Assembly (NCBI GenBank): GCA_949751835.1
Contig: CATKHK010000048.1
Span: 286,345 to 350,344, forward strand
Direction: 5' to 3'
Length of the DNA: 64,000 nucleotides
DNA from: Blepharisma japonicum
Taxonomy: Eukaryota; Ciliophora; Heterotrichea; Heterotrichida; Blepharismidae
The translations under genes were made by a program, and so were the position numbers. A model generated the notes under the pieces. It made no database searches. It was not told the DNA's origin and worked only from the letters and a program-made list of their open reading frames with translations. Position 1 is the first letter of the stretch, and the number at the start of each line of letters is the position of its first letter. Positions 9,617-60,629 of this stretch are shown piece by piece.

Positions 9617-9742
9617 TAAGTAATAATGAAGTAAATTGCAAAATTAATTTGTTAGGCAGTGATTTAAAGGAATTTTTTTATTCAAGGAAGTGAATAGCTG
9701 GCAAAGAAATTAATTAGTCAGATAAATTTTTCTAAAAATAAA

Positions 9743-31406: not shown

Positions 31407-31501
31407 ATTCATGACCATTCTTTTAATTAAAATTAGTCTTTTTAATAATTTTTAATTTCAATTAAATAATACTTTTAAAGCCTTAATAGTTGGCTATAAA
31501 T

Positions 31502-32370
31502 ATGCTAACCTTAATCTGCTTTGGTTTCTCTTAGCCCTTTTCCAGCTTCATGCAGTTGAAGTTTCTGATTCAAATTTAATAGACGATGGTTTTGATATCT
31601 ATGTCGAATTTGCATTAACTGCTGATAGTTTAGATCTAAGTTTAGACTCCCAAGTATTAGTAGAAGATAATAAAGAAGAAATAATCCACAAGAGAATTCT
31701 CCAAGATAATGCTGAGATATGTGAAGATAATATAGCAATTGATATATTCTAAATAACACTGGATGCTGCTTTCAAGGGAGTTATTTTGATGGAGAAAATT
31801 GTGTTTTTTGCGAAGAGGATTGTATGAAGTGTCAAGCATTTACTGGAATGTGTATTGCTTGTAAACCTGAGTTTGAAATAGATGCAGCTGTGATAAGTTC
31901 AGACTCTTGCTGCAGGAAAGGTACTTTTTATAATGTATTTGATTGTGAGTTGTGTTCTTTAGATTGTGAAGACTGTAATAGTGAAATTTGATGTATGACT
32001 TGCAGTTCAGAAATTTCTTTAAATTTTACAATTGATAATTCAGTTGCTTGTTGTCCTCAAAACACTTACTTTGATACCTTTGAATGTGCTTCTTGTTCTT
32101 CTAATTGTTTAGAGTGCGAAAAAACCTCTCAAAAATGTCTAAATTGTTACAGTGAAGTAGCTATAGAAACCACAATATATCATCTCCTAACTTTTGTTGT
32201 AATTCCTCTAGCTATTATAACGGTAACTTATGCGAGCCCTGCCAAACAAACTGTTTAACTTGTGAAAATTCTCCAGAAAATTGCAAAACCTTGTGAAAAC
32301 GAAATAGAAATTGACACCTCATTTTTTTACCCTCAGAATTCTAGTGAACAAGGCCAATTTTATGATAAAA
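31502..32370 (+). pseudogene. Frameshifted copy of the giant gene's 5' end
   Basis: Clearly homologous to the start of the gene at 40107: LNLLWFLLALFQLHAVEV then DSNLIDDGFDIYVEFAL corresponds to LNLFCFLLLFSQLHAVEV and DSDLIDDGFDIYIEFTL, followed by four Cys-rich modules (FTGMCIACKPEFEIDAAV; SSNCLECEKTSQKCLNC). The ATG is out of frame with the leader, and further frameshifts fall near 31750, 32190 and 32295. It ends abruptly at FYDKN then TAA in an A-rich tract. A non-functional partial duplicate. Confidence 0.85.
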
Positions 32371-36895: not shown

Positions 36896-39296
36896 TTAAC
36901 CGCGATTAAACTTAAATTTGACGTCAATAGGGAGATCGCTGCTTTTTAAGTTCGTCACAATCATATATTGTCTTGAAGTTATTTGAGTCAGATACCACGA
37001 AGAAGTATCATAAGTACCAGGACTCTTTATAATAATTTCTTTAATGCTCAAAGGTTCTGGGAGATCATAAGCAAAGTCCAGAATAAGGTTCCCATCTTGA
37101 AAGCGCGTCAAATACCCAACTGAGTTATCAGACGTACAAGTTGATGACTCTTTCTCTATTGCTTTTCCACAGAGATAACACCCTGGATGAGGAGTACAAC
37201 TATTGCAGGACTCAGAACAAGCTAAATAAAATCTTACATAAACATTCTAAAGTGCCTGAATTATCATATAGGAAATATCCTTGGTCACATTTAGAACACC
37301 GTGAAGTGTCATATTCAGCACAATGAGGGATTAAATGATCACAACGAAGGGTTGTTTGGTTAAACACTGCTGTTCCGATACATGAGCAAGTCCCATCCCA
37401 ATTATTTTTCATATATTTAGAATCAAAACATACATTGCAAGAATTCGAGATTATGCATGAAGTGCAATATGAAGTACTTGAAGAAGTTGAAGAACTTAAA
37501 CATTCTGCGCATCCAAATAAGCAAGGCACACAAACTTTGTAATTAAAATCAAATCTATATCCAGGACGGCAGTAGCATCCTCCTGATTCATCTGTTATCA
37601 TATTATCTGGATCATGACATCTGATACAAGATTTAGAATCAGAGCACTCAGCACATCCAGTCCGGCATGGGTAGCACAGACTATCTAGTAAATAATAACT
37701 CTCTTGGCAAGAAGAGCAAAAAAAATCATCAGAGTAGTAGTAGAGTCTAGAAGAGTAACGTTGGTAATACTCAAGAGAGCATGTCTGACACCCAATTTCG
37801 GAGCAAGACCTGCAATTTCACCCATCAAAATAGTATTTTGACTGGCAAGAGCAGGTGCCATCGCCATTGTTAATCATATCGGGGCTAAGGCAGTTTGTGC
37901 AACTGGTTAGACTATTGCAAGTTCTACAGCCCAGAGAACAATATTCACATGTGCTTGTGAGAGAATTCATATAGGTTCCAGGATAATTGCAAGTACAGGT
38001 TCCATCTGGGAATGGAAAATCCGAATTAATGCAATTCCAGCAAGCAGTAGAATTTAAACAATTGTGGCAGCCTGAGTTGCAGCGGCTACATTTATTACCA
38101 ATTGGATCTCAATAATACATATCATCGCAGCCATAGCATTTATTTTTGTCGCAGGAAGTGCAGCCTTCAAACAAATCTGAACATTTCACACAAACTCCCT
38201 CAGAATTTGGAGTATATCTCCATCTGCAGCTAAGGCAAGTATCTTTATTACAGTAATCACAATGCCTGGAGAACTTATTCGAGCATCTTTTGCAGCTGCC
38301 ATCAGTATCTAAATAGGAGCCGTACACGCATGCAATGCAATAATTTTGATTACATGAATAGCAGTTATCAGGACATTTACTGCATTTAGTAGGAGTAGCT
38401 AAATAATAGCCTTCTTGGCAGATGCTGCAAGCATCTTTAGTGCATTGTACACAATTTGCGGTTTGACACTGTTTGCATGTTCTATCATTGTCTAAGTAAT
38501 AATACTGAGCGCAAGAATAGCAATTTGTCATATCACATGACCAGCAATATGGGGTAGGGCATGAGACACAGTTTTTTGTGGAGTCTAAATAGTACTGTGG
38601 ATAGCAGGTTTTACAAGCTGATCCGTCACATGTAGCGCAATTAGGGTATTTTGAGGCACATCAATAGCATAGATTATCATTAGCTTCATTAGAAGTCAGA
38701 TAATTACCATCGTAGCATTCTAAACAGCCATTTTGATTACAACTCTTACAATTATTTGAGCATCTTGTACATCCATTAGTGCTTAAATATGCATATGAGT
38801 AACAGCTGTTGCATGCTGACTCGTCACATGTCAAACAGTCAGGAAATTTAATTGAGCAAGATGTGCATCAGCTTGTTGCTGTATCAAAATATTCATAAGA
38901 AGAACAGCCATTTTCTTGGGTTGTATTCGATTCTTGCATCATTCTTTCACGAATCATAGACTCTTCTAATTGCGTCCTTCTGCTAATGTCATTTTGAAAC
39001 TCAGGAGATTGACTTATCCCGTAGTTAATTGGCTGTCTATAAGGGTTTTGCACTCTTTCTGAGTTCATTAGCAAATCATTAGGTCTTTGGTATTGCCCAA
39101 GATCATTTGGAGGGTAGTTTTGGTTTGGCATCCTGCCCATTTGATTTCTCTGGGATTGAGAGCTGGCATAGTAAAAAGGTGGTTGATTTTGAGGCTGCCT
39201 TCTATTACTAAACTCTGCTTCTTGCTCATAAGGATAATAGAACTGACTTGAAGCTGCTGATATAAGCTGGAACGTTAATAAAAGTATCAAAGCCAT
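36896..39296 (-). CDS. Secreted cysteine-rich protein, FKFNR family, member 3
   Basis: 794 residues after removing a 16-nt intron at 37222-37237 (gtaagattttatttag) and reading several TGA as Trp. Signal peptide MALILLLTFQLISAASS, then an Asn/Gln/Pro/Tyr-rich, probably flexible stretch (residues 20-130; QNQPPFYYASSQSQRN), then about 12 kb-scale-free repeats of short CxxC units (CPDNCYSCNQNYCIACVYGS) to residue about 680, and the shared C-terminal domain (VGYLTRFQDGNLILDFAYDL to VKFKFNRG). The Asn/Gln-rich N-terminus is shared with member 4 only. It diverges from the giant gene, with 810 bp between their starts. Confidence 0.85.
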
Positions 39297-40106
39297 GATT
39301 ATTAAATCATCTACAATTATTTCTTAATTCAAGATCAGCTTAAATTATCTATTTAAAAATTTTCCAACAATTTTATTGCATACTTGCTTTAGTGTTTTAA
39401 AAATTAAACAAAAATTATTTTACTGTTTTTTGATCCTATTTTTAGATGAATTATATTTTGAAAGCTATAGCAATAGGAAAAGAATAATTAATTACTATTA
39501 TAGCTTCTAAACGCTTGAAATTTATAATTTTACCTCTGAACCATATTAATTTTCCCTGGACAAAATGAATCTGTTTAGGTTAATAAACCACTAATATTTT
39601 ATTTGACATTGATAGTTAGGGAATATTCGACTTAAAAATAGCTTAGATTCAAATGGACCTTAAATTTGTTTTGCTTGAGTTATGATAATTATAAATTTCA
39701 ACAAACCAGAAACCGATAAAAATTTAGCAAACCTAGCTTAATATTTTAACAAAGACTCAAATTTTGCTGAATTATTTAAAGCTATTTTGATTAAAAATTT
39801 TGGAAATTTTGGTTAAATCCTAAATTTTTAGCATAGAAGTCTAAATTTACTCATAATTAAATAAATAAGAAATGGTAACAATACTTCAAACAGCTCTTTT
39901 AAATTATTAGCAAAACTTGACCTTGGCAAGTAATTTCAAGTTCTTTATAAATTCGCATTATGCCTTAGATAAAAATTTTATACAAATAATTTATTATTTA
40001 TCTTTATATCTACACCTACTCACTTTTCCACCCTTCAGGCAAAAATTCCTTTAATTTCCATATTATCTATAATTTTTACTACTAAATTAAAGAATTTATA
40101 TAAAAT
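39297..40106. other. Divergent promoter region, giant gene and member 3
   Basis: 810 bp AT-rich sequence between two divergent starts. It must contain both promoters; no motif is recognised. Co-regulation of the two surface-protein genes is possible from this layout. Confidence 0.5.
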
Positions 40107-43100
40107 ATGTCAAAACTAAATCTGTTTTGTTTTCTCTTACTTTTCTCCCAGCTTCATGCTGTAGAAGTAGTCGATTCAGATTTAATAGATGATGGGTTTG
40201 ATATCTATATCGAATTTACCTTAATTGACGATGAAATTGATCCAGCCTCAGATCCTCAACCGGTAGAAAAAAGTCAAAGGCTTCTTCAAGAAAGTTCAGG
40301 CTCATGCGAAAGCGAGTTGGTAATAGACACAACATTTCAAGAAATTGAGTGCTGTCCAGAATCAAGCTATTTTGATGGTAAAAATTGTGTCTCTTGTCCT
40401 TTAAACTGTTCAGATTGCCAAGATATAACTGGAGCTTGCATTACTTGTAAAGCTGAGCTTGATATAGATATATACATTAAGGATTCAGACTCATGCTGCT
40501 CTAAAGGATTTTTTTTAAATGGAGAAGCTTGTGAATCATGCTCTGAAAACTGCTTAAACTGTAATAACGCTAATTTATGTACCCTTTGTAATGGAGAAAT
40601 AAATATTGACGTTGCGATTGGAAACCCTGAATCTTGTTGTCTCCAAGGAACTTTTTATAATGGAGTTGAATGTGCAGCCTGTTCAGAAAACTGCTTGGAA
40701 TGCGAAGATATCACTCAAAAATGCATAAGTTGTGACACTGAAATAACGTTGGATTTGATAATAGCCTCTCCTGAAAATTGCTGTGGCCCTAGCACCTATT
40801 ATAATGGAGCCGAATGCGTCCCTTGTCCAAAAAATTGCTTAGACTGTGAAAATTTTACGGGAAACTGCAAAAACTGTGATAAAGAAGTAACAATTGACAT
40901 TTCAGTCTCATATTATGACAATTGCTGCCAGTTAGGCCAATTTTATGATTCCAATGAAAATACCTGCAAGCCATGCTCACAAAATTGTTTGGATTGTGAT
41001 GATTTTAGCAGCTGCAAAGACTGCAATGATGAAATAACTCTTGATTTAGCTATAATAAGTCCTTCAGATTGTTGCCCTCAAGGTGAGTTCTATAGCTCAG
41101 AAGAAAGTACTTGTAAATCATGTTCTCCAAATTGTTCAGAATGCGAAGGATTAAGCAGCTGCAAGGCGTGTAATGATGAGATAACTCTTGATTTAGCTAT
41201 AATAAGTCCTTCAGATTGTTGCCCTCAAGGTGAGTTCTATAGCTCAGAAGAAAGTACTTGTAAATCATGTTCTCCAAATTGTTCAGAATGCGAAGGATTA
41301 AGCAGCTGCAAAGCGTGTAATGATGAGATAACTCTTGATATAGCAATAACTTCCTCAGATTGTTGTCCTGAAGGCGAGTTTTATGATGAAATAAATCAAA
41401 TTTGCAAGCCTATTTCTTCTAATTGTGATAAAGAATTGATTATTGAAATAGCTGTTATAAATCCTCCTTATTGTTGTCCCCAAGGACAATTCTATAATTC
41501 AGCAGAAAATTCATGCAAGCCATGCCCTGAAAACTGCTTAGAATGTGATGAATTCGGAAAATGCCAAAATTGTGAAAAAGAGCTGACAGTAGAAATAGAA
41601 ATTACAACACCTGAAAATTGCTGTGGCCAAGGAAATTTCTATGATTTATTAGATAATATATGCAAGCCATGCCAATCTGGCTGCTTAAAATGTGATGCAT
41701 CAGGGATTTGTAAGTCTTGTGATAAAGAAGTAACAGTCGATCTGACTATTCTAGATCCATCAAATTGCTGCAATCAAGGACAGTTTTATGATTCTTCTAG
41801 TAATTCATGCATTCCATGCTTAAATAACTGCTCAGAATGTGATGCATTCGGAAAATGCAAATCTTGTGAAAATGAGTTGAGCCTTGACACGTCAATTATA
41901 GATCCATCAAATTGCTGCCCTCAAGGCCAATCCTATAATACATATGGCTGCCAACCTTGCGCAGATAACTGTTTAGACTGTACCGCTCAAAAATGTAATG
42001 CCTGCAGCAAAGATATAACTCTTGACATTCAGATCATAAGCCCTGACAACTGTTGCCCCATTGGAAAATATGCAGATAGCAGCCAAAATTGTGTTTCTTG
42101 TCCAATTAGCTGCTTAGATTGCACAAGTTTTTCCTCTTGTAAGCAATGCTCAAGTGAAGTTACTATTGATACAACTATCTTAGACCCTGAAATTTGTTGC
42201 AGCAAAGGATCTTATTTTAATGGCATCTATTGCAGCCAGTGTTTATTAAATTGTAAAGATTGCGAAGATATAACTGGGTTCTGTAAATCCTGCCTAGGAG
42301 ATGTGACGTTAGATGCTACTATATTCAGCTCAGAAAATTGTTGCTCTACAAGCTATTTTTATAATGGGGTTAACTGTCTCCCATGCCCTAAAAACTGTAT
42401 GGATTGTGATTCTATTACTGGGAACTGCAAAACATGCTTATCAGAAATAGTTATTGATGCTTCTATTATAAACGCTGAAAATTGTTGTTCTGAAGGCTAC
42501 TACTATGATGGTGTGAACTGTAATAAATGCTCCTTAAACTGTCTGGATTGTAAAAATGGCTTATGCAGCAAATGCCAAAATGAGGTGACTATTGATGCAG
42601 TGGTCCCTAACTCTGATTCGTGCTGTAGCTCTGGATTTTATTATTCAGGAACAAGCTGCTTTCCATGCTCAGAAAGATGCAGTACTTGTAAAGATTTTAC
42701 TGGTGATTGTTTGATGTGCAATAATGAAATTATAATAGATTCTAGCATATCAGACTCTGAAGTGTGCTGCACTTTAGGATATTATTATAATGGCGTAACT
42801 TGCTTGCCTTGCTTATCAGGATGTAATGATTGTTTTGATTATTCTGGACTCTGTAAAAAATGTAATGCTGAGACAGTCATTGATACAATAGTTACTGATC
42901 CAGATAACTGCTGTCCGAAAGGGTATTTTTATGATGGGACAAATTGCAATAAATGTTCTGTCAACTGTGTAGACTGCGATCAAGGGCTTTGTATAGCTTG
43001 CAATTCCGAAATAACTATTGATGCAAATATTAAGAATTCTGAATCTTGCTGCTCAAAAGGCAGCTACTATGATGGTAATAATTGCATTCCTTGCCCATCA

Positions 43101-46100
43101 AATTGCATTGATTGCGAAAATGGTATATGTAACAAATGTCAAAACGAATTGGAAATTGACTTAGAAATTCTAAATCCCCAGTCTTGCTGCAGTCCTGGCT
43201 ATTATTATACTGGAACCAATTGTTTACCTTGCTCTATCAGCTGTAGTAACTGTAAAGATCTAACTGGCGAATGTTTACAGTGCAATAAAGAGGTCGACAT
43301 TGATACTACAATTATTGATTCGGATTCTTGCTGTCCTCCAGGAACATTTATTGATCTGAGCGATAATAAATGCAAACCATGCTCTTCCAGTTGTAAAGAA
43401 TGTGAAGGACAAAATTCCTGCAAATCTTGCAATAAAGAGGTGACTATTGATACAACTGTTTCAATTCCAACTAATTGCTGCAGCGAAAATACTTTCTTTG
43501 ACTTAAACGATCAAGTCTGTAAGCCATGTGCTTCAAACTGTCAACAATGTGAAGGACTAGGATCATGCCAACTTTGTTCAAATGAAATTACAATTGATGC
43601 AAATATATGAAGCTCGGAGTCTTGCTGTGGTTCTAGAACCTTTTTTGATGGAAATAACTGCATAGCGTGCCCAACAAACTGTGTGGATTGCCAAAATATG
43701 ACTGGATATTGCAAATCTTGCAATAATGAAATTACGATTGATGCCATGATTTCGGACTCTGATTCATGCTGCGCTTTGGGCTATTATTATAATGGTGCGA
43801 TTTGTTTGTCTTGCCCATCAAGTTGTGTTGATTGCTTTGACTATAGTGGGTCGTGCAAGAAGTGTAATTCTGAAACTGTTATTGATACAACAATTACTGA
43901 TCCAGATTACTGTTGCCAAAAAGGGTATTATTATGATGGAACGAGCTGCAATAAATGCTCAACAAATTGTTTAGATTGCAATCAAACTATTTGTAAAGTT
44001 TGCTTACCAGAAATAACTATTGATGCATCAATTATTAATTCTCAATCCTGCTGCTCAAAAGGCAGCTATTACGACGGTAACAGTTGCGTTCCTTGTCCAT
44101 CAAATTGTGATGATTGTGAAAATGGCTTATGTAACAAATGTCAAAACGAATTGGAAATTGATATAGAAGTTCTCGATCCCGAGTCTTGCTGCATTCCTGG
44201 CTATTATTATACTGGTACAAATTGTTTACCTTGCTCAAGCAGCTGTAGCAATTGTAAAGATCTAACTGGTGAATGCTTACAATGTAATAAAGAGCTTGAT
44301 ATCGATATCACAATTATTGATTCTGATTCCTGTTGTCCTCCAGGAGCATTTATTGATCTAAGCGACGATAAATGTAAGCCGTGCTCTTCCAATTGTAAAG
44401 AATGTGAAGGACAAAACTACTGCAAATCTTGCAACAAAGAAGTGACTATTGACACAACTGTTTCAATTCTAACCAATTGCTGCAGCGGAAATACTTTCTA
44501 TGACTTAAACGAGCAAGTCTGCAAGCCATGCTCTTCAAATTGTCAAAAATGTGAAGGACTAGTATCATGCCAACTTTGTTCAAATGAAATTACAATTGAT
44601 GCAAGTGTAATAAACTCTGAGTCTTGCTGTGGCCCCAAAACCTATTTTGATGGAAATAACTGTTCAGCTTGTCCATCAAATTGTCTTGATTGTCAAAACA
44701 TGACTGGATTCTGTAAATCTTGTAATAATGAAATTGCGATTGATGTCACAATATCAGATCCTGGATCATGCTGCGCCTTGGGCTATTATTATAACGGTGC
44801 AATTTGTTTGCCTTGCTTATCAGGTTGTATTGATTGCTTGGATTACTCTGGAAACTGTAAAATATGCAATTCTGAAGCTGTTATCGATGTTTCAATCTCT
44901 GATCCAGATAACTGTTGTCTTAAAGGATATTATTATGATGGGATGAACTGCAATAAATGCCCTATAAACTGCTTAGATTGTAATCAAGGACTTTGCACAT
45001 CTTGTAATTTAGAGATTACTATTGATGTTTCAATCTCTGATCCAGATAACTGTTGTCTTAAAGGATATTATTATGATGGGATGAACTGCAATAAATGTCT
45101 TATAAACTGTATAGATTGTAATCAAGGACTTTGCACATCTTGTAATTTAGAGATTACTATTGATGCAACAATTATGACTTCTGAGTCTTGCTGCTCGAAA
45201 GATAGCTACTATAATGGTGTCAGCTGCGTTCCATGCTCGCCAGATTGTATTGATTGTGAAAATGGATTGTGTAACAAATGTCAAAACGAATTGGAAATTG
45301 ATTTAGAAATTCGCGATCCTGCATCTTGCTGTAGTCCTGGCTATTATTATACAGGTACAAATTGTTTACCTTGCTCAAGCAGCTGCAGTAACTGTAAAGA
45401 TCTAACTGGTGAATGCTTACAATGCAGCAGCGAGCTTGGAATCGATATCACAATTATTGATTCTGATTCCTGCTGTCCTCCAGGAACATTTATTGATCAA
45501 AGCGACGATAAATGTAAGCCGTGCTCTTCCAATTGTAAAGAATGTGAAGGACAAAACTACTGCAAATCTTGCAATAAAGAAGTGACTATTGACACAACTG
45601 TTTCAATTCTAACCAATTGCTGCAGCGAAAATACTTTCTTTGACTTAAACGAGCAAGTCTGCAAGCCATGCTCTTCAAATTGTCAAAAATGTGAAGGACT
45701 AGGATCATGCCAACTTTGTTCAAATGAAATTACAATTGATGCAAGTGTAATAAACTCTGAGTCTTGCTGTGGCCCGAAAACCTTTTTTGATGGAAATAAC
45801 TGTGTAGCTTGTCCATCAAATTGTCTTGATTGTCAAAACATGACTGGATTCTGTAAATCTTGTAATAATGAAATTGCGATTGATGTCACAGTATCAGATC
45901 CTGGATCATGCTGCGCCTTGGGCTATTATTATAACGGTGCAATTTGTTTGCCTTGCTCATCAGGCTGTATTGAGTGTTTTGATAACTCTGGAAACTGTAA
46001 GAAATGCAATTCTGAAGCTATTATCGATGTTTCAATCTCTGATCCAGATAACTGTTGTCTTAAAGGATATTATTATGATGGGATGAACTGCAATAAATGC

Positions 46101-49100
46101 CCTATAAACTGCTTAGATTGTAATCAAGGACTTTGCACATCTTGTAATTTAGAGATTACTATTGATGCAACAATTATGACTCCTGAGTCTTGCTGCTCGA
46201 AAGGTAGCTACTATAATGGTGTCAGCTGCGTTCCATGCTCGCCAGATTGTATTGATTGTGAAAATGGCTTATGTAACAAATGTCAAAACGAATTGGAAAT
46301 TGATTTAGAAATTCTTAATCCTGAGTCTTGCTGTAGTCCTGGCTATTATTATACTGGAGCAAATTGTTTACCTTGCTCAAATAGCTGTAGCAATTGTAAA
46401 GATCTAACTGGTGAATGCTTACAATGCAATAAAGAACTTGGTATCGATATCACAATTATTGATTCTGATTCCTGTTGTCCTCCAGGAACATTTATTGATC
46501 AAAGCGACGATAAATGTAAGCCGTGCTCTTCCAATTGTAAAGAATGTGAAGGACAAAACTACTGCAAATCTTGCAATAAAGAGGTGACTATTGATACAAC
46601 TGTTTTAATTCCGACCAATTGCTGCAGTGGAAATACTTTCTATGACTTAAACGAACAACTCTGCAAACCATGCTCTTCAAATTGTCAAAAATGCGAAGGA
46701 CTAGAATCATGCCAACTTTGTTCAAATGAAATTACAATTGATGCAAGTGTAATAAACTCTGAGTCTTGCTGTGGCCCCAAAACCTATTTTGATGGAAATA
46801 ACTGTGTAGCTTGTCCATCAAATTGTCTTGATTGTCAAAACATGACTGGATTCTGTAAATCTTGTAATAATGAAATTGCGATTGATGTCACAGTATCAGA
46901 TCCTGGATCATGCTGCGCCTTGGGCTATTATTATAACGGTGCAATTTGTTTGCCTTGCTCATCAGGTTGTATTGATTGTTTTGATAACTCTGGAAACTGT
47001 AAGAAATGCAATTCTGAAGCTATTATCGATGTTTCAATCTCTGATCCAGATAACTGTTGTCTTAAAGGATATTTTTATGATGGGATGAACTGCAATAAAT
47101 GCCCTATAAACTGCTTAGATTGTAGTCAAGGACTTTGCACATCTTGCAATTTAGAGATTACTATTGATGTTTCAATCTCTGATCCAGATAACTGTTGTCT
47201 TAAAGGATATTTTTATGATGGGATGAACTGCAATAAATGCCCTATAAACTGTATAGATTGCGGCCAAGGGCTTTGCACATCTTGCACTTCAGAGATTACT
47301 ATTGATGTTTCAATCTCTGATCCAGATAACTGTTGTCTTAAAGGATATTTTTATGATGGGATGAACTGCAATAAATGTCCTATAAACTGTATAGACTGCG
47401 GCCAAGGGCTTTGCACATCTTGCAATTTAGAGATTACTATTGATGCAACAATTATGAGCTCTGAGTCTTGCTGCTCGAAAGGTAGCTACTATAATGGTGT
47501 CAGCTGCGTTCCATGCTCGCCAGATTGTAATGATTGTGAAAATGGTTTATGTAACAAATGTCAAAACGAACTTGAAATTGATTTAGAAATTCTCGATCCT
47601 GAGTCTTGCTGCAGTCCTGGCTATTATTATACAGGTACAAATTGTTTACCTTGCTCAAATAGCTGTAGCAATTGTAAAGATCTAACTGGTGAATGCTTAC
47701 TATGCAATAAAGAACTTGGCATTGATACCACAATTATTGATCCAGATTCCTGTTGTCCTCCAGGGACATTTATTGATCTAAGCGATAATAAATGCAAACA
47801 GTGCTCTTCCAATTGTAAAGAATGTGAAGGACAAAACTACTGCAAATCTTGCAATAAAGAGGTGACTATTGATACAACTGTTTTAATTCCGACCAATTGC
47901 TGCAGTGGAAATACTTTCTATGACTTAAATGAGCAAGTCTGCAAGCCATGCTCTTCAAACTGTCAAAAATGTGAAGGAGTAAGCTCATGCCAACTTTGTT
48001 CAAATGAAATTACAATTGATGCAAATATATGAAGCTCGGAGTCTTGTTGTGGCTCAAGAACATTTTTTGATGGAAATAACTGTATAGCGTGCCCAACAAA
48101 CTGTATGGATTGCCAAAATATGACTGGATTCTGTAAATCTTGCAATAATGAAATTTTAATTGATGCAAGAATATCAGATCCTGGTTTATGTCAAACCTCA
48201 GGATATTATTACAATGGTTCGATTTATGTTCCTTGCCCATCTGGGTGCCTTGATTGCTTTGACTACACAGGGTACTGCAAAAAATGTAATTCTGAGGCAG
48301 TTATTGATACTACAATTACAGATCCAGATAACTGTTGCTCTAAAGGGTACTATTACGATGGCACCAATTGCAATAAATGCTCTATGAACTGTTTAGATTG
48401 TGATCAGAGAATTTGCAAAGCTTGTAACTCTGAAATCACAATTGACGCATCTGTTATTAATTCTGAGTCTTGCTGCTCTAAAGGCAGCTATTATAATGGC
48501 ATTAATTGTGTCTCTTGTCCATCTAACTGCATTGATTGTGAAAATGGCTTGTGTAGTAAATGCCAAAATGAAGTTATAATTGACACAGAAATTTTTGATT
48601 CTTATTCATGCTGTAGCACTGGATATTATTATACAGGAACAAATTGTTTATCTTGTTCAAATAAATGTATCAATTGCAAAGATTCAACTGGTCAATGTCT
48701 GCAATGCTCAAGTGAAGTGACTATTGATTCTACAATTATTGACCCTGATTCATGCTGTCCTCCAAATCAATATATTGATTGAAGCGATAATAAATGCAAG
48801 TCATGTTCTCTCAATTGTGCAGAATGTGAAGGACAAAATCAATGCAAAGGCTGCAAAAAAGAGGTGACTATTGATGCAACTGTTTCAATCCCAACAAATT
48901 GTTGCAGCGGGAATACTTTCTATGATTTAAATGAGCAAGTCTGCAAGCCATGTGCTTCGAACTGTCTAAAATGTGAAGGAGCCAGCACATGTCAATCTTG
49001 CTCTAATGAAATCATAATTGATGCAAGTATATGAAATTCTGAGTCTTGCTGTGGTCCTAGAACCTTTTTCGATGGAAATAACTGCATATCTTGCCCATCA

Positions 49101-52100
49101 AATTGTGTGGACTGCCAAGGGATGAGTGGATATTGCAAATCTTGCAATAATGAAATTACGATTGATGCAGCCATATCAGATCCTGGACTATGTTACACCT
49201 CAGGATATTATTATAATGGTGCACTTTATATTCCTTGCCCATCTGGGTGTGCTGATTGCTTTGATTATACAGGGTACTGCAAGAAATGCAATACAGAAGC
49301 AGTTATTGATACTACAATTACTGATCCAGAAAGCTGCTGCCTTAAAGGGTATTTTTATGATGGAACTGGCTGTAATAAATGCTCTAATAACTGTTTAGAA
49401 TGTAGACAAGGGACTTGCACATCTTGTAATTCTGAAATCACTATTGATGCGTCAATTAAAAGCTCTGAGTCTTGCTGCTCGAAGGGCAGCTATTATAATG
49501 GCAATATTTGCATTCCTTGCTCATCAAAATGTACTGACTGCAAAGAATTAACTGGGATCTGCAACTCCTGTGATAAAGAAATCACCGTCGATGCCACTAT
49601 TGTTAACCCTGACAATTGTTGCTCTTCAGGCTACTTTTATGATGGCAGCTCATCATGTCTTTCATGCCCCCTTAACTGCTTACAATGTGAAGGGCCAAAC
49701 CAATGCAATGCCTGTGGCAATATAATTACTCTAGATACTTCAATAATAGACCCAACAAATTGCTGCCCTGATAGTCAATTCTACGATTTAAGCGACAGCA
49801 CATGCAAGCCATGCTCACAAAGCTGCTTAACTTGTAATAAATCAAATGAATGCAGCGCTTGTCAAAAAGAGATTACTATTGATACAGTTATTTCTGACTC
49901 AGCAGCTTGCTGTCCTCCTTCTCATTTCTATGATAAAAATGAAAATATATGCAAACCATGCTCATCTGGCTGCTCAGAATGCGATGAAACAGGCAGCTGT
50001 GATTGCACAAAAGAGCTTACACTTGATATAGCTATTATAGATCAAGTAAACTGCTGCTTAGATGGGACCTTTTATGATACAAATGATAAAGTATGTAAAC
50101 CATGCCCACAAGACTGCTTATACTGTGATAGATTTGGGTGTAAAAACTGCAATAAAGAGCTAGACATCGAAATTTCTATAATTGACTCTACAAGTTGCTG
50201 TCCACCAGGATTTTTCGAAGACCTAAATCAGAATTGTGCCAATTGCTCTCCTAATTGCTTAGAATGCTTAGATATCGGTACATGCAAAAAATGTGGAAAA
50301 GATATAACGATTGATGCAGAAATAGTAAACCCTGAAAATTGCTGTGGGAAAAATAGATATTATGATGGATCAAGCTGCCAGAGCTGCTCTAATAACTGTG
50401 AAGTCTGTGCAGATTTCAATGGAAGCTGTCAAGAATGTAATAGAGAAGTTACTGTGGATGCTGTTATTGATGGGTCTGAAAATTGCTGCTCTAGAGGATT
50501 TTGGTATGATGGGACTAGCTGTAGTCAATGCTCGAAAGATTGTGTAGACTGTAGCAGCGGATCAGATTGTAAAGCCTGCAATTCTGAGGTAACTATTGAT
50601 GCTGAAATTCTTGACCCAGGGTCTTGCTGCTTGACAGGCTTTTATTATTCTATGTCAGGATGTCTTAAATGCCCTACAAACTGTTTAGATTGTGTAGACG
50701 AAACTGGGCTCTGCTTAAGCTGTGACAATGAAGTAACAATTGATGCTGCCATTATAGACCCAGAATCTTGCTGTCCTTCAAAAACCTATTATAATGGCTC
50801 AGCATGCAGCCCTTGTTCCACCAACTGTTTAGACTGTAAAAATTTATCTGGAAATTGTGCTCTTTGCAGCAGTGAAGTGACAATTGATGCTGCCATTATA
50901 GATCCAGAATCTTGCTGTCCTTCAAAAACCTATTATAATGGCTCAGCATGCAGCTCTTGCTCGGCCAACTGTTTAGACTGTAAAAATTTATCTGGAAATT
51001 GTGCTCTTTGTAATAGTGAAGTGACAATTGATGCTGCCATTATAAACCCAGATTCTTGTTGTCCTTCAAGCACTTATTATAATGGTTCAACATGCAGCCC
51101 TTGCTCCGCCAACTGCTTAGACTGTAAAAATTTATCTGGAAATTGTGCTCTTTGTAACAGTGAAGTGACAATTGATGCTGCCATTATAGATCCAGAATCT
51201 TGCTGTCCTTCAAAAACCTATTATAATGGTTCAGTATGCAGTCCTTGTTCCGCCAACTGCTTAGACTGTAAAAATTTATCTGGAAATTGTGCTCTTTGTA
51301 ACAGTGAAGTGACAATTGATACTACAATAAGTATCCCTAGCTTCTGCTGCAGCTTAGGTAGCTTTTTCAATGGAATTTCCTGTTTACCTTGTCCATTAAA
51401 TTGCCAAGACTGTGAAGATTTCACTGGAATCTGTAAATCTTGTAATAAAGAACTGGAAATTGATATACAAGTTTTAAGTTCTGATTCCTGCTGCAGCTCC
51501 AACCACTATTATGATGGCTCAAATTGTGCGCCGTGTCCTAATAATTGTATAGAATGCAAAGACATATCAGGTGAATGCTATTCTTGCTCTCCAGAACTAG
51601 ATGTAGAGGTATCAATTATAAACTTAAACACTTGTTGCCCTCCTATGCATTATTTTGATGGTCTCAATTGTCTTGCTTGTGGGACTATGTGTTCAGTCTG
51701 TGATTCTATAAGCAGCTGCACTGTGTGTAATGATACAAGTTTACAAGAAATTGATTTGAATAGCCCAGGAAACTGCAAGTGTATTTCTTCAGCTTATTAT
51801 GATGGAGAAAATTGCCAGAGATGTGGCATTTTATGCTCTATTTGTAATGCAAATGAATGCAGTCAATGCAGCGATCCTATAAATATGGAAAAAGACTCAA
51901 CGAATACTAAGAACTGTAAATGCAAAGAAAAACTTTATTATGACAGTAATGCAAAACTATGTCAGCCATGCATAGAAAACTGTTTGGCTTGCAATAGTGC
52001 TGCTTCATGCAGCCAATGCAATGCTGGCTATTATTTTGATGGATCTGCCTGCGTAATATCAAGCTGCCCTCTAGGAAAATATATGGAAAATTATGTTTGT

Positions 52101-55100
52101 AAAGATTGCATTGCGCCTTGCTCTACTTGCCATAATTCCACCTTTTGCAATTTCTGTATACACTCTGAGACAATGGTCTTAGATCCTGCATTAGGAACTT
52201 GTTCATGTCTGCCTGGCTATTTTTATAATACTAATCTAAAAACATGCAGCTTATGCGAAAGCCCCTGCTTAACTTGTTCAGGATCAGCTACATTCTGCTT
52301 AGACTGTATTGACTCCACAATGAACTATAGTCCTCAGCAAGGAGTTTGTTCTTGCCAAATATACCAATATTTTGAAACTGGAAAATGTGAGGATTGCTTA
52401 AGTCCATGTGAGGCTTGTTCATCTCCTAACTTCTGCTTAAGTTGTGTGGATTCAGAAATGATTTATGATGCAAAGTCTGGGACCTGTGCTTGTCCTGATG
52501 GAAAATACTTTGATTCGACTGCTCAGTCATGCCAATCTTGTGTAGGATCCTGCCAAAAATGCTTGAATTCTGCATTTTGCCTTACTTGTAAAGATTCTTC
52601 AATGACATATAATGCATATTCTGGGACTTGCACTTGTCCTTATCACCGCTATTTTGATGCTGTTACTTTATCTTGCCAAAGCTGTTTGGAAACTTGTGGG
52701 ACTTGTTTAGATTCAATATCATGCACCTCTTGTATAGACTCTAATATGAATTACGATACTAATACCAAACTCTGCAGTTGTGGCACTAATCAATATTTCT
52801 ATAAAGCATCAAAAACTTGCAGAAATTGTCAAGGACCTTGTAAATCTTGCACATCGGATACATTTTGCACTTCTTGTCTTGACACTTCTACACTTGACAG
52901 TTCTACAGGAGTATGCTCTTGCTCACAATATGAATATTTCAATACCTTGCTTTCTCAATGTAAATCATGCTCTGGATTATGCTTAACTTGCTCATCTGAT
53001 AACGTTTGCACATCATGTGTTTCTAATACAAACCCAATAAGTAATGGAGTGTGCAGTTGTATAGATGGATTATATCCTTCAGGCAGAGTATGTGTTGAAT
53101 GTCCTTATCCATGTGCGACATGTTCAAGCTCTACAAGATGCGAGACCTGCAAAAAGAATTCATATCTTGACTCTACTGATCAATTTTGTCACTGCCAAAC
53201 TGGTTTTACTCTAACAAGTATTGATAATTCTAACTACTGTAGAGCAGACTGCAATAGTTTATGCACAGAATGTGACATAGATAATGGCAATAAATGCTCC
53301 AAATGTATTACGAATGCAGAACTCTCAGAATCCACCTGCTCTTGTACTGAGAATTCCTCTTATGATAGCTCTTCTAAAAGCTGTGTCTGCAAGAGTGGCT
53401 ATGCTCTGTCCTACAATAAGTGTGTGGTATGTAAGAAATATCTATCCCCAGCTGATATAAAATCTGCAAGCTTTAGCTCGACGTGGACTTCTCTTTATGT
53501 CTACTTTAACGTCAAGCTAGATACCTCACTAGATCCAAGCTGCTCCAAAGTATTTGATGGGTCAACTTATACATTACTAGGAAGCAGCCCAATTTGTTCA
53601 TGGACAGACTCTAAAACCCTTAAGGTAGCATTAGGGACTTATTATGGTATAAGAAGCCAAGCTATTTATCTTGATGGGACATATCTTGTTAAAGACACTA
53701 CAGATCCTTGTACAATTACATATCAGCCACTTTCTGTGGTTATTCAATCCACAGCAACACCATCTCCAGTCGCCGTTATAAGTGGCCCGACCAGTCTTTA
53801 TTTAAGCTGTGGATCAGAGCCTATTGTATATTCTGGTGAAAGATCTCAGATGGGGCTAGGCTCTCCACTAACTTACAGCTGGTCTTCCCGCATTTCTCCA
53901 TCAAATAAAAGCTTAAACGATTTTATCCAATCCCAACGCACTTCTTCAATATCAATTTCTATGTCCTATTTCCCTGCTTCAGCATCTACCACTTTGACTA
54001 TAACTCTAAATGTGACGAACTTCCTGGGCTACTCAAATCAATCCTCACTAACCACAACAGTGAATATAGGAAATGCCTTATCTATTGTATTTGATCAAGG
54101 AAACTCAGTTAGTATGTGGTTTTCGTCATCAAAAACCCTCAAAGCAAAAATCAGTTCTGTTTGTTCGTCATTTACTACGAACCCAGTTACTTGGACTTGG
54201 AGTTATGATACCTCGAAAAACCCTTCTGTAAACTATGAATCAGTGCTTAAAAACGCGAAATTAGATAAGTTGACGATTCCTAAAATGACTTTGCCTATTG
54301 GAGGACCTTATATTTTTATTGCGTCTGCAGCACAAGTGAATACTAATGTTACTTTGACTGGGAGTGGTAAAGTTTCTATTACAATCACTTCTTCACCTTT
54401 AATTATACAGCTGTCGAAGACTAGTGGTGATGTTTCACCAAATGAAGATTATAATATAAATGCTATTGGCTCAAAAGACCCTGATGATCCTACTGGAGTC
54501 TTGAATTATGAATGGCTTTGTCAAAATAGTGAGGATGAATCAGATTGCTTAGGAAGTGATGGAGAAATATTACTGCTTAATGAAACTGCTGCCACCTTGA
54601 CCATCCCTACAAGCAGAATGGTTAAAGGAGCCTTATGGGATATTATCTGCACTATTTCAAAGGACACTCGCAGTGCAAGCGCAATGGTAGAAATCAACAT
54701 TTTGAACGAAAACACTGAAATTTCCATTGAAATTACGATGAGTATGCAAAAATTCAGTCCTCAGCAAAACATCCAATTTTCAGCAAATGTAAGTTCTGCA
54801 GCTCCAGCCCAAATGATTTGGTCAGAAAAATCAAGCTCAGATATTTCTATTTCTCCTAATTACTTATCCTCAGTTTCAATCCCCTCTAATTCCTTACTAG
54901 AAGGCACTACTTATACCTTTACTCTTACAGTTACAATAGACTCCTCAAATCTTAAATTCATCACCCAGCTTCCCATTACTCTCAATTTCGGTGCATCTTG
55001 TTCTGGGGATTTCATATTAAGCCCAAGCAGTGGTACAGCCTTAATAACTGTGTTTACGATCGGCATATCTGGCTGTTATGACAAAGATGAAGAAGACTAC

Positions 55101-57344
55101 CCATTAACCTATACCTACTTTGACGCTTGGAATAATAAGCTTTATGTCCTTGGCTATACCTCAGAAACCAACTATATAAATACATATCTATTTTCTAATA
55201 AAAACACCCTGACTTTCCACGTCTGTGATAGCTTAAAAACATGTGCTGATTATTCAAGTGAAATAACTACAGTCCCATATAATAGCAGGCTATTACAAAC
55301 TTCTTCGCTTATGGATGCTTATATGAGGAATATTTTAATAGACACCGACAATGTTCCTTCTACGATCACACTGTTTTGCAGCTCAGCTACAATTGACTCT
55401 GCCTTATTTTCGCAGATGTGGAGTGATTTGCAGAGTTATGTGGAAAATAATGATATTGATGACCGAACAATAGAAAATGTATTAGGATCTGTATATGCAA
55501 TGATGAGCCAGAGTGACTTATTGAGTATTGAAATGTTTCAAAGCTTATTTGACTGGCTTTATGGGATACTTTCTGATAATCCTACTATTGTGCCGACACA
55601 AGAAAATATTAAAAAAGTTGTAGCTTTAGTGGATGAATATTTGTTGTATGGAAATTCAACTGATTATGAAGGCAAAACTTTAGAAGAGTATATAATAACT
55701 GCTGACAAATTCTTATCAGCATGGACAGTTGCTGCCACTGTTGACGATTTGGTGACTCAAAACTCTCTTGATGGCTCTCAAAATACAATTCAAACTAAAA
55801 CATTTAAGCATAGAAACTTCCCAAGCACAATGTCTAATAAAACGATTTCTCTAGGAGAAAACAGGACTGTCTCATTCCCTGCTCGTTTTAGCTATCCAGA
55901 TACAAATATTATGAACATAAAGGCGAACTACTATAACACATCAAATGATTATTCTGACGTTGCAGTACTCAGCTTTGCTCAATCTGGGACTTATATAGAC
56001 TATGTCTTAACAAAGTCAGCAGAAGAGTATGTTCCATTTACTAGCCAAGATTACCCAGTAATGTTAGAGATGCCTATTTATGACAGTATTGAGAACGGGT
56101 ATAACTGGACTTGTGTCTTTTATAATGAGACTGATAAAAACTGGGTCCATGATGGTTGTGGTATAAAAGAAATCAAAGAGAAAAGCATCATTTTTGAAGT
56201 CTATCATTTCTCTATGTATAAGCTTGGCCAAGAGAAAATCACAATCCCAGACGTCCCACCAGTACTAAGCAATGAATCATGCTCCCAGAACTATGCACCT
56301 GCTTATATTTTGGGATCAAATTTCTTCCTTATATTGATTTTGCTACTAATTGTAATCTCTTTGGATAAAAAAGACGAAAAAGGAAAACCTGCTATCAGCT
56401 GATTATCACCCAATAATGCGAACCAAATAGTCCCTGAGCTTGTTGAATCACCCAATAATGAGAATCAAGTAGTCCCTGAGATTGTTGAATCTTCACAGCC
56501 TAAGATAAATGCAACTCCAATGGAGCGGTCAGACAGAAGTCTTCCTCCTGAAAACTCTCATAAAGATGCTAAGGTGGCTCCTGAGCCATTATATCAAAAC
56601 TATGTAAGCCAAACTGAGCAGCCTGTCAAAAAGAAGCATCATTCTCATAATATCACCACTGTGGTCCCGCTTCCTGCACAATTGCCTGAAAATAAGTATC
56701 TAGATAACGAGAAAAGCATTGATTTCGATAATGTTGATGAGCTCAATATTGTCATACCTGAAAATAATTTTAATATACCTGAAGAAATATATAATATCAA
56801 TAATGAAGCACCTACAGAAGCGGCTAAAACTGAATGTGCTCAGCTCTTTGAGGGGCATTTATTGTTTGGCTTGGCTTACTATAGATATGGATATCCAAGA
56901 AAAGCTAGACTATTTGTATTGACAACTGTGATTGCTCTTGAGCTTTTCTTAGAAGGACTTCTACTGTATATGTTTGAAAATGTTGAGTCAGGATCATCAG
57001 CATCAACTGAGAGTCTCTTTAATGACTATGAAGGAAAATATTTGGCTCTTACAATTTTAGCACTTGGAATTACTATTCCTGTTGAAATATTTTTAAGCTT
57101 GGTATTTAGCACGAATAGGCTTAGGACATCAGGGTTACTGAATACTGCTGTTGGAATAGGAGTTGTTGTGCTTGCTGGATCTCCGATTGGAACTATTGTA
57201 CTCAGTTCTATATTCTGCTCAGAGTGGAGTGGATATTGGGCAATTAGCTTCTTCTATGGAACTCTTCTGCAAGTATTTGTGTTTGAAACGATTTATATGT
57301 GTGTTAGATATTTTGCGCGTCAGATTGTTCCTAAAGGATGGTAA
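40107..57344 (+). CDS. Giant cysteine-rich REJ/GPS membrane protein (5745 aa)
   Basis: A single frame of 17238 nt from ATG to TAA. The apparent stops at 43608, 48030, 48780, 49031 and 56400 are all TGA in the same frame (I-W-S/N-S-E-S-C-C in the repeats), so it is one gene. Order: signal peptide (MSKLNLFCFLLLFSQLHAVE); acidic DLIDDGFDIYIEF; about 80 modules of about 48 residues, C..(E)(I/V)TID..I...SCC..G.YYDG..C..C..NC.DC....G.C..C, to residue about 3880; furin/EGF-like modules to about 4440; REJ/PKD-like Ig-type region about 4445-5200 (SGPTSLYLSCGSEPIVYSGE, GSKDPDDPTGVLNYEW); GPS-like motif about 5334-5376 (WTCVFYNETDKNWVHDGC, VYHFSMYKL); one membrane helix about 5396-5420; hydrophilic loop; four more helices to the C-terminus. 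This resembles polycystin-1-type receptors without the PLAT domain. Confidence 0.92.
41041..41334 (+). repeat. 147-nt near-perfect tandem duplication
   Basis: Two copies starting at 41041 and 41188 differ at a single base that I can see (ggcg/agcg), and the next module starts 147 nt later at 41335. Each encodes one 49-residue module ending CKSCSPNCSECEGLSSCKAC. The near identity points to a very recent event or gene conversion. Confidence 0.85.
42724..49560 (+). repeat. Higher-order repeat, 1002-nt unit of seven modules
   Basis: The landmark ATGAAATT within NNE(I/A)..ID recurs at 42724, 43726, 44728, 45868, 46870, 48148 and 49150. Spacings are 1002, 1002, 1140, 1002, 1278 and 1002 nt. The longer ones equal 1002+138 and 1002+2x138, and they contain two and three copies of the 46-residue module with DVSISDPDNCCLKG and NCIDC(N/G)QGLCTSC. 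The 334-residue unit holds seven modules in fixed order. Homology fades after about 49560. Confidence 0.9.
50730..51305 (+). repeat. Four 144-nt tandem modules
   Basis: Units start at 50730, 50874, 51018 and 51162, exactly 144 nt apart, each encoding EVTIDAAIIDPESCCPSK.. to CKNLSGNCALC. They are nearly identical in DNA, with the fifth junction at 51306 opening a different module. Confidence 0.88.
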
Positions 57345-57645: not shown

Positions 57646-60157
57646 CTAACCACGATTAAACTTGAATCTGACGTCGATAGGAAGATCACTATCTTGAAGG
57701 TTAGTAGAAATCATATATTGCCTTGGAGTTACTTGAGTCATACGCCATGACGAGGTGTCATAATTCCCTGGACTCTTTATAATAATTTCTTTAAGACTCA
57801 GTGGCTCTGGAAGATCATACGCAAAGTCAAGGATAAGGTTCCCATCTTCAAAGCTTGTCAAATATCCTACTGAGTTGTCAGAAGTGCAAGTTGATGACTC
57901 TTTCTCTATAGTAGTCCCACAAAGATAGCATCCAGGATGAGGATCGCAGCTATTGCAAGACTCAGAACAAGCTAAATAAAATCTTACATAAACACTCTAA
58001 GACTCCTGAATTATCATATAGAAAATGCCCTTGATCACATTTAGAACACCCTGAAGTTCCATATTCAGCGCAATTTAATGTTGAATTTTCTGACTGTGAA
58101 TTCTCACAGCGAAATGTAGATGAGTTATATGTCATATTTCCAACACAAGAGCATGATCCATTTTCATTGTTTACCATATAGTAAGCATCAAAGCAATTTT
58201 CACAATTACCCGCGAAATCTCTGCAATATGCACATCCAGACAAGCAAGGCTGGCAAGTTCTGGGGTTTGAATAATCAAGGTAATACCCAGGAACACACTC
58301 ACACTGCCCATAAATATTTTCTATCATATTTTCACGATCTGAGCACTTAATCTCTGGCATCGGCTCAATACATTTGACTGTAACACTAAAATGAGTCGAG
58401 CCTACAACTTCACAAGTTTTGCAACCCCAATCTGAGCAAGGCTGGCAATAGAAGCCATTGTTAAAGACATAAGAATTTGATCGGCAGGAGCAGGTTCCAT
58501 CACCATTGTTTATCATGCCTGGAATTCAGCATTTGTTGCAGCTGGTTGAATTATTGCAATCTTTACACCCATGTGAACAAAACCCATAAGTATTTGTGAG
58601 GGTATTTAAATAGGTACCTGCATCACTGAGTTTTTCACAAGTCCCATCAGAATATGGCATTCACCCATATTCACAATGCATACAAGACGTTGGATTGAAA
58701 CACTCCTCACAGCCAGGACTACATGGTTGGCACTTACCATCATTATCTCTGTAATAGTTAGTATCACAATCCATGCAGGAAGCCCCATTGCAATATCTGC
58801 AACCTTCATACACTTTAGAGCATGCGGCGCAAGTACCGTTAGAGCTTGGAACAAAGTTATAATCTATGCAACCAATGCAAGTCAACTCAGTGCAACTGCT
58901 GCATCAGTCACCAAACTTCTCAGAGCATAATTTGCATTTGTTTTCAGAGCTCCAATAATAACCGTTTTCACAATTTGTGCATACATTTGGGTTCTCCTGA
59001 CAGTCAAGACAATGATCAGGACATTTGCTGCATGTAGGATAATCAACGTAGTACCCACTTTGGCAGCTATTGCAGCCTCTTTGATTACAAGAGGTACAAT
59101 TACTCGAGCAAGGCTGACATTTATAATTTTCATCAGAATAAAAGAGTGAATTGCACCATACACATTGCCCATAAATGTTGCATATAACGCAATTTTCATC
59201 ACAAATAGTGCATTTGCCATCTGGAGTCAAATAAGTATCACCAGAACAGGTTTTGCAGCCTGATTTATCGCAATCATTGCAATTTGGAAAAGTTAAAGAG
59301 CAGCTGGTGCAATAGGAAAACCCATCAGTGCTATTTGAGTCTAAATAATACCCTGCATTGCAGACTTGGCATCCTAATATGCTGCATTGTTGACAATTAG
59401 GAATTGTTGAAGCGCAATTAGAGCAATAAGAAAACTCATTCAAAAAGTATCCATTGTTACATTTGGTGCATGAAGTCGCGTTGCATTTATCACAGCCATA
59501 ATCACATGGAAAGCATTCACCATCAGAGTCTTTATAATAATGATCTAGGCAGCTAATGCAGCCTGTTTGATCACAAGTAGCGCAGCCATCTGGGCATATA
59601 GCGCATTCTCCATCTGCATTTAGAGGAATACCGATAATGCAATAATGGCATGCATTTTCATCACATGACCAACATTTTGGGAATTTCGTATGGCATTCAG
59701 CGCAGCTCCCAGTAACACTGTCAAAATATTGATCTTCTTTACAACCATTATCTTGAAGTTTCCTTTCTACTGGCGCAGATTCGTTTAAATCCTTTATGTT
59801 TCTTCCAAATTTGTTCATATTGTTTGGCAAATCATAAGGATATTGGTTCGTTCTATATTTTGCTGACTCTCCATTTGGATTTTGCTTTATTGAAGACTTC
59901 TTGGGGTCTTGCACTTTTCTTAAGTCCATATCTGCCTCATTTGGACTTTTAAATGAGCCAGAGTCCGTTGATGGGGAATTTTGATTCTGGTCTCTTCTGT
60001 TATAGTATTTTTCGGTTTGAGATCTCCCAAAGTCTGTTGGGGATTGATTTTGATACTGATTTCCACCTTGGAAGTCAGTTGGAGGTTCTCTAGGGTTTTG
60101 GAATTGATTTGATGAGACAAATATAAGATGAAAAGCTATCAAAAATATCAAAACCAT
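57646..60157 (-). CDS. Secreted cysteine-rich protein, FKFNR family, member 4
   Basis: 831 residues after removing a 16-nt intron at 57972-57987 (gtaagattttatttag) and reading TGA as Trp (KFGDWCSSCTE; CEYGWMPYSDG). Signal peptide MVLIFLIAFHLIFVSSNQF, then a charged Asn/Gln/Ser-rich stretch (residues about 20-135), then some 15 short CxxC units (CDENCVICNIYGQCVWC), and the common C-terminal domain (VGYLTSFEDGNLILDFAYDL to VRFKFNRG). Closest to member 3 in architecture and to member 5 in its 3' half. It converges with the giant gene. A cell-surface or extracellular role is inferred from the leader and lack of membrane helix. Confidence 0.86.
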
Positions 60158-60629
60158 AACAATTATTATATCATCTACAATTATCTTAGAAAAGACCTAG
60201 TACAGTTCTAGCCAGTATTTTTAAAATGGGCATTAAGCTTTGTCTTATAACATAATTATATAGATTTCAAAAATGACACCAAGTGCTTTTGATTTATGTA
60301 TTAGTAGATTCTAATTAAAACATCATGAGATATAATTTAATTTTTAATAAAAATTAAACAAATTTCACATATCAACTTTTAAAAAGATCTATACTTAAAA
60401 ATACTTTAAATTTCCAGGCTGCTTCAGAACTCATAGCTAAGTTAAGCCATAATTTATTTGGAATTGGCAATACAGACAATAAATAACCTAAATTTGAAAG
60501 TTTCAGTGTTCTATTCCCCTAAGAATAAACTAACTCGAAAAAGGACAAGAAATAAAATAGCTGGATTTCTAGCTTATACTTAACCTATTAATGGAATCAA
60601 TTTACGCATCATAGAAAATAAAAACTTAA
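60158..60629. other. Upstream region of member 4
   Basis: 472 bp AT-rich promoter side of member 4, no gene seen. Confidence 0.5.

What the first reader, a model, noticed from the sequence alone, without database searches (positions are those of the whole stretch)
40107..57344. A 5745-residue receptor-like protein hidden by code misreading
Five apparent stops are TGA in one frame, so six ORFs merge into a single 17.2-kb gene with about 80 cysteine-rich modules, REJ/PKD-like region, degenerate GPS motif (two of the usual four Cys; HFS at the expected cleavage step) and five membrane helices. The combination of a huge VSP/furin-like ectodomain with a polycystin-like stalk and membrane part is not one I know as a described family.
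Basis: partly seen in the sequence, partly recalled or inferred. Interest (0 to 1): 0.85.

Follow-up and report, generated by a model that had tools for sequence, protein, structure and literature searches.

The report
Giant ciliate REJ-type surface receptor
A single-celled ciliate that reads the stop codon TGA as tryptophan carries one intact 17-kb gene for an enormous cell-surface protein, with about 90 cysteine-rich beads, a polycystin-1-type REJ stalk and five membrane helices, probably a contact or pull sensor of a kind not found described in the papers searched.

Summary
With TGA read as Trp, 40107-57344 is one open frame of 5745 residues with five in-frame TGA and no internal TAA/TAG. 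Pfam domains of five neighbouring genes run straight through in-frame TGA codons. Code, base composition and 16-nt introns fit a Blepharisma-like heterotrich ciliate (inferred). Similar repeats evolve under purifying selection on both sides of the TGAs (pN/pS 0.25 overall). The protein has a hydrophobic N-terminus, 80 main-type cysteine modules, 10 shorter ones, a significant REJ domain (E 1.6e-30), a sub-threshold GPS motif ending HFS, and five C-terminal hydrophobic helices, the last one weak. No PLAT and no channel domain were found, so it is not a standard polycystin-1. Its outline (cysteine-rich ectodomain plus five helices) also resembles the Tetrahymena mating proteins MTA/MTB/MRC1. I read it as a very long adhesion or force receptor working like polycystin-1 or an adhesion GPCR; fold, cleavage, ligand and signalling are inferred. 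"Hidden by code misreading" is only an effect of the wrong translation table. A broken relic of a similar gene's 5' end lies at 31.5-32.3 kb, within a cluster of cysteine-rich genes.

The parts
40107..57344 (+). coding sequence, 5745 aa, read with TGA=Trp; no internal TAA/TAG
40107..40160 (+). likely signal peptide (hydrophobic N-terminus)
   Evidence: hydropathy; boundary by eye
40278..40289 (+). RLLQ, residues 58-61, before the modules: possible processing motif
40350..51734 (+). 80 main-type modules, mostly 46-49 aa, consensus with 8 Cys; two lack the CC, one is truncated, the last is partial
43608..43610 (+). in-frame TGA (residue 1168)
48030..48032 (+). in-frame TGA (residue 2642)
48780..48782 (+). 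in-frame TGA (residue 2892)
49032..49034 (+). in-frame TGA (residue 2976)
51780..53174 (+). 10 shorter cysteine modules without CC, resembling those of the neighbouring Cys-rich genes
53433..54149 (+). stretch before REJ, read by eye as Ig/PKD-like
   Evidence: inference; no Pfam family above its cut-off
54150..55295 (+). REJ domain (PF02010), residues 4682-5063
   Evidence: E 1.6e-30
55287..55298 (+). second RLLQ, residues 5061-5064, at the end of REJ
55398..56219 (+). GAIN-like region by position: predicted helices then strands, ending in the GPS-like motif
   Evidence: mean pLDDT 37.3, weak; position
56109..56219 (+). degenerate GPS motif, HFS at 56205-56213
   Evidence: (14.8 bits, below cut-off; profile aligned at residues 5335-5353 only)
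56289..56378 (+). membrane helix 1
56379..56903 (+). linker rich in N, E and P, predicted cytosolic; contains the fifth TGA (56400-56402)
56904..57311 (+). membrane helices 2-5, C-terminus predicted cytosolic; helix 5 weak
31498..32316 (+). broken relic of the 5' end of a similar gene (65% identity over 828 alignment columns, E 9e-35, stops in all three frames)

Best explanation
One intact gene of a heterotrich ciliate, probably Blepharisma, for a giant plasma-membrane receptor. About 90 disulfide-rich beads form a stalk (of the order of 200 nm if extended, using the recalled size of TNFR-type modules) that binds a surface, a partner cell or prey. Load passes through the REJ-type stalk into a GAIN-like domain, which may cut itself at HF|S while both halves stay together; pulling then exposes or shifts the tethered strand and signals through the five-helix part and its linker, as proposed for polycystin-1 and adhesion GPCRs. 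Shown: gene, code, repeats, REJ, hydrophobic helices. Weakly supported: GPS. Inferred: surface location, GAIN fold, cleavage, ligand, force sensing, signalling.
For: Open frame; Pfam domains of neighbouring genes running through in-frame TGA; UGA=Trp, 66% AT and 15-16 bp introns in Blepharisma (PMC9942806 section 5) and 16-nt introns inferred in three neighbouring Cys-rich genes. Purifying selection: pN 0.066, pS 0.263 over 72 equal-length module pairs above 80% DNA identity. REJ E 1.6e-30. GPS sub-threshold but between REJ and TM1, with 15 residues from the GC cysteine to His. Charges fit N-terminus out, C-terminus in (by eye). For PC1: two FNIII-like REJ domains unfold at about 200 and 60 pN (PMC3677617 passages); the GAIN-REJ region is critical for GPS cleavage and PC1 keeps only one of two GPS disulfides (PMC4810088 passages); PC1 is described as an atypical adhesion GPCR with a GAIN domain (PMC13197933 passages).
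Against: GPS is below Pfam's cut-off, lacks two of four Cys, and has Phe for the conserved Leu; the review warns that bulky changes there can wreck the GAIN fold. No PLAT, channel or 7TM hit. PC1 TM similarity fails shuffle tests. No usable model of the stalk or membrane part. Helix 5 is marginal. Module pairs linking pieces 0 and 2 have pN/pS 0.66. No expression, localisation or homologue data.
Confidence: 0.5

Rival explanations
1. It is a relative of the ciliate mating-recognition receptors (Tetrahymena MTA, MTB, MRC1): a Cys-rich ectodomain plus five membrane helices used for partner recognition.
For: [quoted passage not shown] the giant has the same coarse outline. The receptor for Blepharisma gamone 1 is still called putative in PMC10892320 (passages).
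Against: No MTA/MTB sequence could be compared here. PMC10901506 holds the terms REJ and PKD nowhere. The MTA/MTB Cys-rich match is about 80 residues, the giant's about 4300. No mating-type link is known.
Confidence: 0.2
2. It is mainly a structural cell-coat protein, and the REJ/GPS/TM part is only an anchor.
For: It lies in a cluster of Cys-rich genes with hydrophobic, signal-peptide-like N-termini by eye; repeats are turning over (tandem arrays; relic copy).
Against: Five helices and a linker of about 175 residues are more than an anchor needs; a REJ domain followed by a GPS-like motif is a receptor arrangement.
Confidence: 0.22
3. The frame is an artefact: TGA really stops, and separate genes or a pseudogene lie here.
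For: Under table 11 the frame breaks at five TGA; a truly broken relic exists nearby.
Against: Pfam domains of neighbouring genes run through in-frame TGA; purifying selection in pieces before and after the TGAs; the relic has 8-18 stops per frame in 0.8 kb, the giant none in 17 kb.
Confidence: 0.03

Closest known systems
Polycystin-1 / sea urchin SpREJ (PKD1 family)
   Same: REJ domain, GPS-like motif before TM1, first helix followed by a cytosolic stretch and more helices, very large ectodomain
   Different: No PLAT, no channel helices TM6-11, no PKD repeat reaching its Pfam cut-off (a K319L-like PKD match of 16.3 bits, cut-off 27, lies inside REJ); about 90 Cys modules instead; GPS below cut-off
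Tetrahymena MTA, MTB and MRC1
   Same: Cys-rich growth-factor-receptor-like region and five predicted membrane helices in a ciliate surface protein
Furin-like / TNFR / R-spondin cysteine modules
   Same: Short units with regularly spaced Cys; weak profile hit to R-spondin-1 (E 0.015) and GPR179 (E 0.024)
   Different: Own consensus CC-x10-C-x2-C-x3-C-x2-C-x6-C-x2-C; no Pfam family reached its cut-off; fold hits (Meckelin, SCARF1, 4-1BB, HER3) have E 0.14 or more and TM-scores to the query of about 0.1-0.23
Adhesion GPCRs (GAIN/GPS)
   Same: possible GAIN/GPS ahead of the membrane helices
   Different: five, not seven, helices; no 7TM family hit

Membership tests
PKD1/REJ family | REJ domain | tested here: met
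   PF02010 E 1.6e-30, 106.6 bits, cut-off 25
PKD1/REJ family | GPS motif upstream of TM1 | tested here: inconclusive
   PF01825 14.8 bits, cut-off 22.5; not listed in the longest piece
PKD1/REJ family | PLAT/LH2 after TM1 | tested here: not met
   no PLAT hit at E up to 10; the loop is rich in N, E, P. Five of ten SpREJ proteins have PLAT (PMC1934368 passages)
PKD1/REJ family | 11 TM with channel-like last six | tested here: not met
   five helices, no channel family. SpREJ proteins range from 0 to 11 TM
PKD1/REJ family | sequence similarity of TM2-5 to human PC1 | tested here: inconclusive
   scores within the shuffled range. Against control-channel windows: 44 of 418 reach the TM2-3 score and 158 of 421 the TM4-5 score; 0 of 404 reach the joined score and 0 of 691 the extended TM2-3 score
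MTA/MTB/MRC1 | five TM helices | tested here: met
   against; helix 5 marginal
MTA/MTB/MRC1 | Cys-rich GFR/furin-like region | tested here: inconclusive
   Cys modules present; homology to the MTA/MTB repeats not compared
MTA/MTB/MRC1 | mating-type-specific segment and role in pairing | not testable with these tools
   needs strains and experiments
Adhesion GPCR | 7TM domain | tested here: not met
   no hit; five helices

The most novel reading that the evidence does not exclude
The five-helix membrane unit of ciliate mating-recognition proteins (MTA/MTB/MRC1) and the TM1-TM5 unit of polycystin-1/REJ proteins are the same ancient receptor core, and this giant, which carries REJ and a GPS-like motif together with a Cys-rich ectodomain and five helices, is the link. 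Recognition of gametes or partners through REJ-type receptors would then predate animals, and the giant would be a candidate for an unidentified Blepharisma mating or contact receptor.
Probability: 0.12. Interest if true: 0.85.

Novelty: new variant of a known kind. Interest (0 to 1): 0.5.

Why it matters
It shows a REJ domain with a GPS-like motif in a heterotrich ciliate, on a very long Cys-rich ectodomain and without PLAT or channel parts. That bears on what the ancestral polycystin-1 stalk and membrane unit looked like and on whether ciliate mating or contact receptors share that origin. The receptor for Blepharisma gamone 1 is still called putative in the 2024 paper seen here (passages), so a concrete candidate makes the question testable.

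Tried and rejected
Fold of the stalk and membrane part: single-sequence AlphaFold2 of residues 5000-5745 gave mean pLDDT 37.3; I did not search it because matches would be meaningless. Fold of three modules, with a 66-row alignment of the window's own repeats: pLDDT 71.5, pTM 0.27; Foldseek against PDB gave 97 matches at E up to 10 (50 listed), none at E up to 0.001. Relatives: six peptide patterns from the C-terminal 1316 aa matched nothing in viral contigs; the module alignment had no stretch conserved enough to search with, in viral or genome contigs (errors). No own genome is held (error), so paralogues elsewhere could not be counted. VIA-align was not available. The EMBO J paper on the GAIN domain is not held. 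Searches failed because I gave out-of-frame coordinates; repeated in frame.

Rejected as evidence: that the tabulated ORFs all end in TAA/TAG follows from listing them under code 4 and proves nothing about the code. Hidden 15-nt introns: a scan for GTA[AG]-N9-AG with at least 11 A/T listed none, and main-type module spacings differ by at most 3 residues apart from one of 37 and two of 96; introns of other shapes are not excluded. Polycystin-1 TM2-5 similarity looked striking by eye but failed shuffle tests: 71 of 500 (TM2-3), 388 of 500 (TM4-5), 63 of 500 (joined), 106 of 1000 (extended TM2-3, gap 11/1), 312 of 1000 (gap 7/1) shuffles reach the observed score. I do not claim homology.
Full report
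Observation. With table 11 the region breaks into pieces at TGA. With table 4 it is one frame of 5745 residues plus stop, 40107-57344, with five TGA and no internal TAA/TAG. The other five frames carry 188 to 342 TAA plus TAG each. The second codon upstream of the ATG is TAA.

Is TGA really sense? In 14 of 17 other ORFs tabulated TGA occurs inside the frame. Stronger, Pfam domains run through TGA codons: an AMP-binding enzyme (domain 78-506, TGA at 102 and 139), a kinase (2-93, TGA at 59), a dual-specificity phosphatase (1-110 and 174-275, TGA at 74 and 264), an ion channel (85-321, TGA at 86, 181, 257 and 274) and a YTH protein (149-277, TGA at 232) (positions, domains). That these ORFs end in TAA or TAG is no evidence, since they were listed under code 4. 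The giant uses 19 TGG and 5 TGA. Among its repeats, 72 pairs of equal-length modules above 80% DNA identity have pS 0.263 and pN 0.066, overall ratio 0.25; five of six combinations of pieces lie at 0.18-0.28, one at 0.66. Pairs are not independent and only equal-length modules were paired. Three neighbouring Cys-rich genes contain 16-nt stretches that read as introns, GTAATAAATTATTTAG and twice GTAAGATTTTATTTAG. The Blepharisma stoltei genome paper reports UGA=Trp, 66% AT and 15-16 bp introns (PMC9942806, section 5). I infer a Blepharisma-like heterotrich; no tool named the organism.

Anatomy. A hydrophobic N-terminus (boundary by eye) is followed by about 63 residues and then the modules: 78 CC starts with 77 spacings (36 of 48, 18 of 49, 18 of 46, 2 of 47, 2 of 96, 1 of 37), hence 80 main-type modules counting two without CC; 10 further hits score above zero, and 3 of the 93 hits score below zero. 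In 66 overlapping three-module rows, chosen for regular CC spacing, all 24 Cys columns are invariant. Modules repeat in blocks of 7-8: 12 of 33 equal-length pairs at lag 7 and 10 of 29 at lag 15 exceed 75% identity. Pfam was scanned on residues 1-1000, 3501-4500 and 4299-5745 in pieces, not on 1001-3500; the only module hit was TNFR_c6 at E 1.2, below its cut-off. A profile of the modules reached R-spondin-1 at E 0.015 and GPR179 at 0.024 among PDB sequences. REJ is at residues 4682-5063, E 1.6e-30. GPS scores 14.8 bits against a cut-off of 22.5, aligned at 5335-5353 only, and was not listed in the longest piece. By eye the register continues to HFS at 5367-5369, with 15 residues between the GC cysteine and His, the spacing of latrophilin-1 as I recall it. 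The two later GPS cysteines are missing; polycystin-1 itself is reported to have only one GPS disulfide (PMC4810088, passages). Five hydrophobic segments follow, peaks 2.81, 2.21, 2.23, 2.16 and 1.52 at a cut of 1.5; a segment inside the REJ region (1.59) also passes and I do not count it as a helix. Flanking charges place the C-terminus inside. The single-sequence model of residues 5000-5745 is unusable as a fold (mean pLDDT 37.3), though its helices at 5098-5217 followed by strands at 5246-5366 are what a GAIN domain would show.

Surroundings. Four further Cys-rich genes lie within 11 kb (29.6-31.4, 34.9-36.5, 37.2-39.3 minus, 58.0-60.2 minus); their weak hits cover the same part of the profile as the giant's shorter modules. 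At 31498-32316 a broken copy of the 5' end of such a gene aligns at 65% identity, E 9e-35, with 15, 18 and 8 stops in the three frames. Such genes duplicate and decay here, which makes the unbroken 17 kb more telling.

What it works like. In PC1, two FNIII-like REJ domains unfold at about 200 and 60 pN (PMC3677617, passages), the GAIN-REJ region is critical for GPS cleavage (PMC4810088, passages), and PC1 can be regarded as an atypical adhesion GPCR (PMC13197933, passages). I therefore propose a long contact or force receptor; this step is inference. What it belongs to: the sea urchin PKD1-family proteins usually carry PKD repeats, REJ, GPS, PLAT and 1-11 TM (PMC1934368, passages). Here REJ is met, GPS open, PLAT and channel not met. 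I file it as a REJ-domain receptor, not as a polycystin-1. MTA/MTB/MRC1 share the outline of a Cys-rich part plus five helices (PMC10901506 and PMC3608545, passages), but no sequences could be compared.

Literature. Ten searches were made. REJ domain with ciliates, and GAIN domain with Tetrahymena and polycystin, gave no paper. The others gave listings, several capped (20 of 53, 25 of 2054, 12 of 14, 8 of 240 papers), in which I saw no description of this combination. The ciliate GPCR survey PMC9960496 holds the terms GPS, REJ and PKD nowhere. Only open-licence papers are held. From memory, databases list ciliate proteins as 'PKD/REJ-like', so unnamed relatives probably exist.

Verdict. A real, intact, unusual gene.

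Noticed in passing
40278-40289 and 55287-55298: RLLQ occurs exactly twice in the giant, before the modules and at the end of REJ (shuffled mean 0.0045; 0 of 2000 shuffles reach two). R-x-[LM]-Q also precedes the Cys modules in three of the four Cys-rich neighbours. Possible propeptide cleavage signal.
   Followed up: partly
31498-32316: Broken relic of the 5' end of a gene like the giant, about 0.7 kb upstream of a frame with an IFT122 zinc-ribbon match just below Pfam's cut-off (25.6 bits, cut-off 27).
   Followed up: partly
9698-16234: 2178-aa ORF with four cyclic-nucleotide-binding stretches and three Ion_trans stretches: looks like a four-repeat channel on one chain, as in the CNGK channels of sea urchin sperm as I recall them.
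   Followed up: partly
21779-22711: CCCH zinc finger (22.8 bits, cut-off 20.5) plus a YTH domain in one protein, an arrangement I recall from plant and apicomplexan CPSF30.
   Followed up: no
29571-31406, 34910-36479, 37200-39323 minus, 57950-60196 minus: Cluster of Cys-rich genes; the first two share a C-terminal end RFKFNRN; none reached a Pfam cut-off (main frame of each only).
   Followed up: partly
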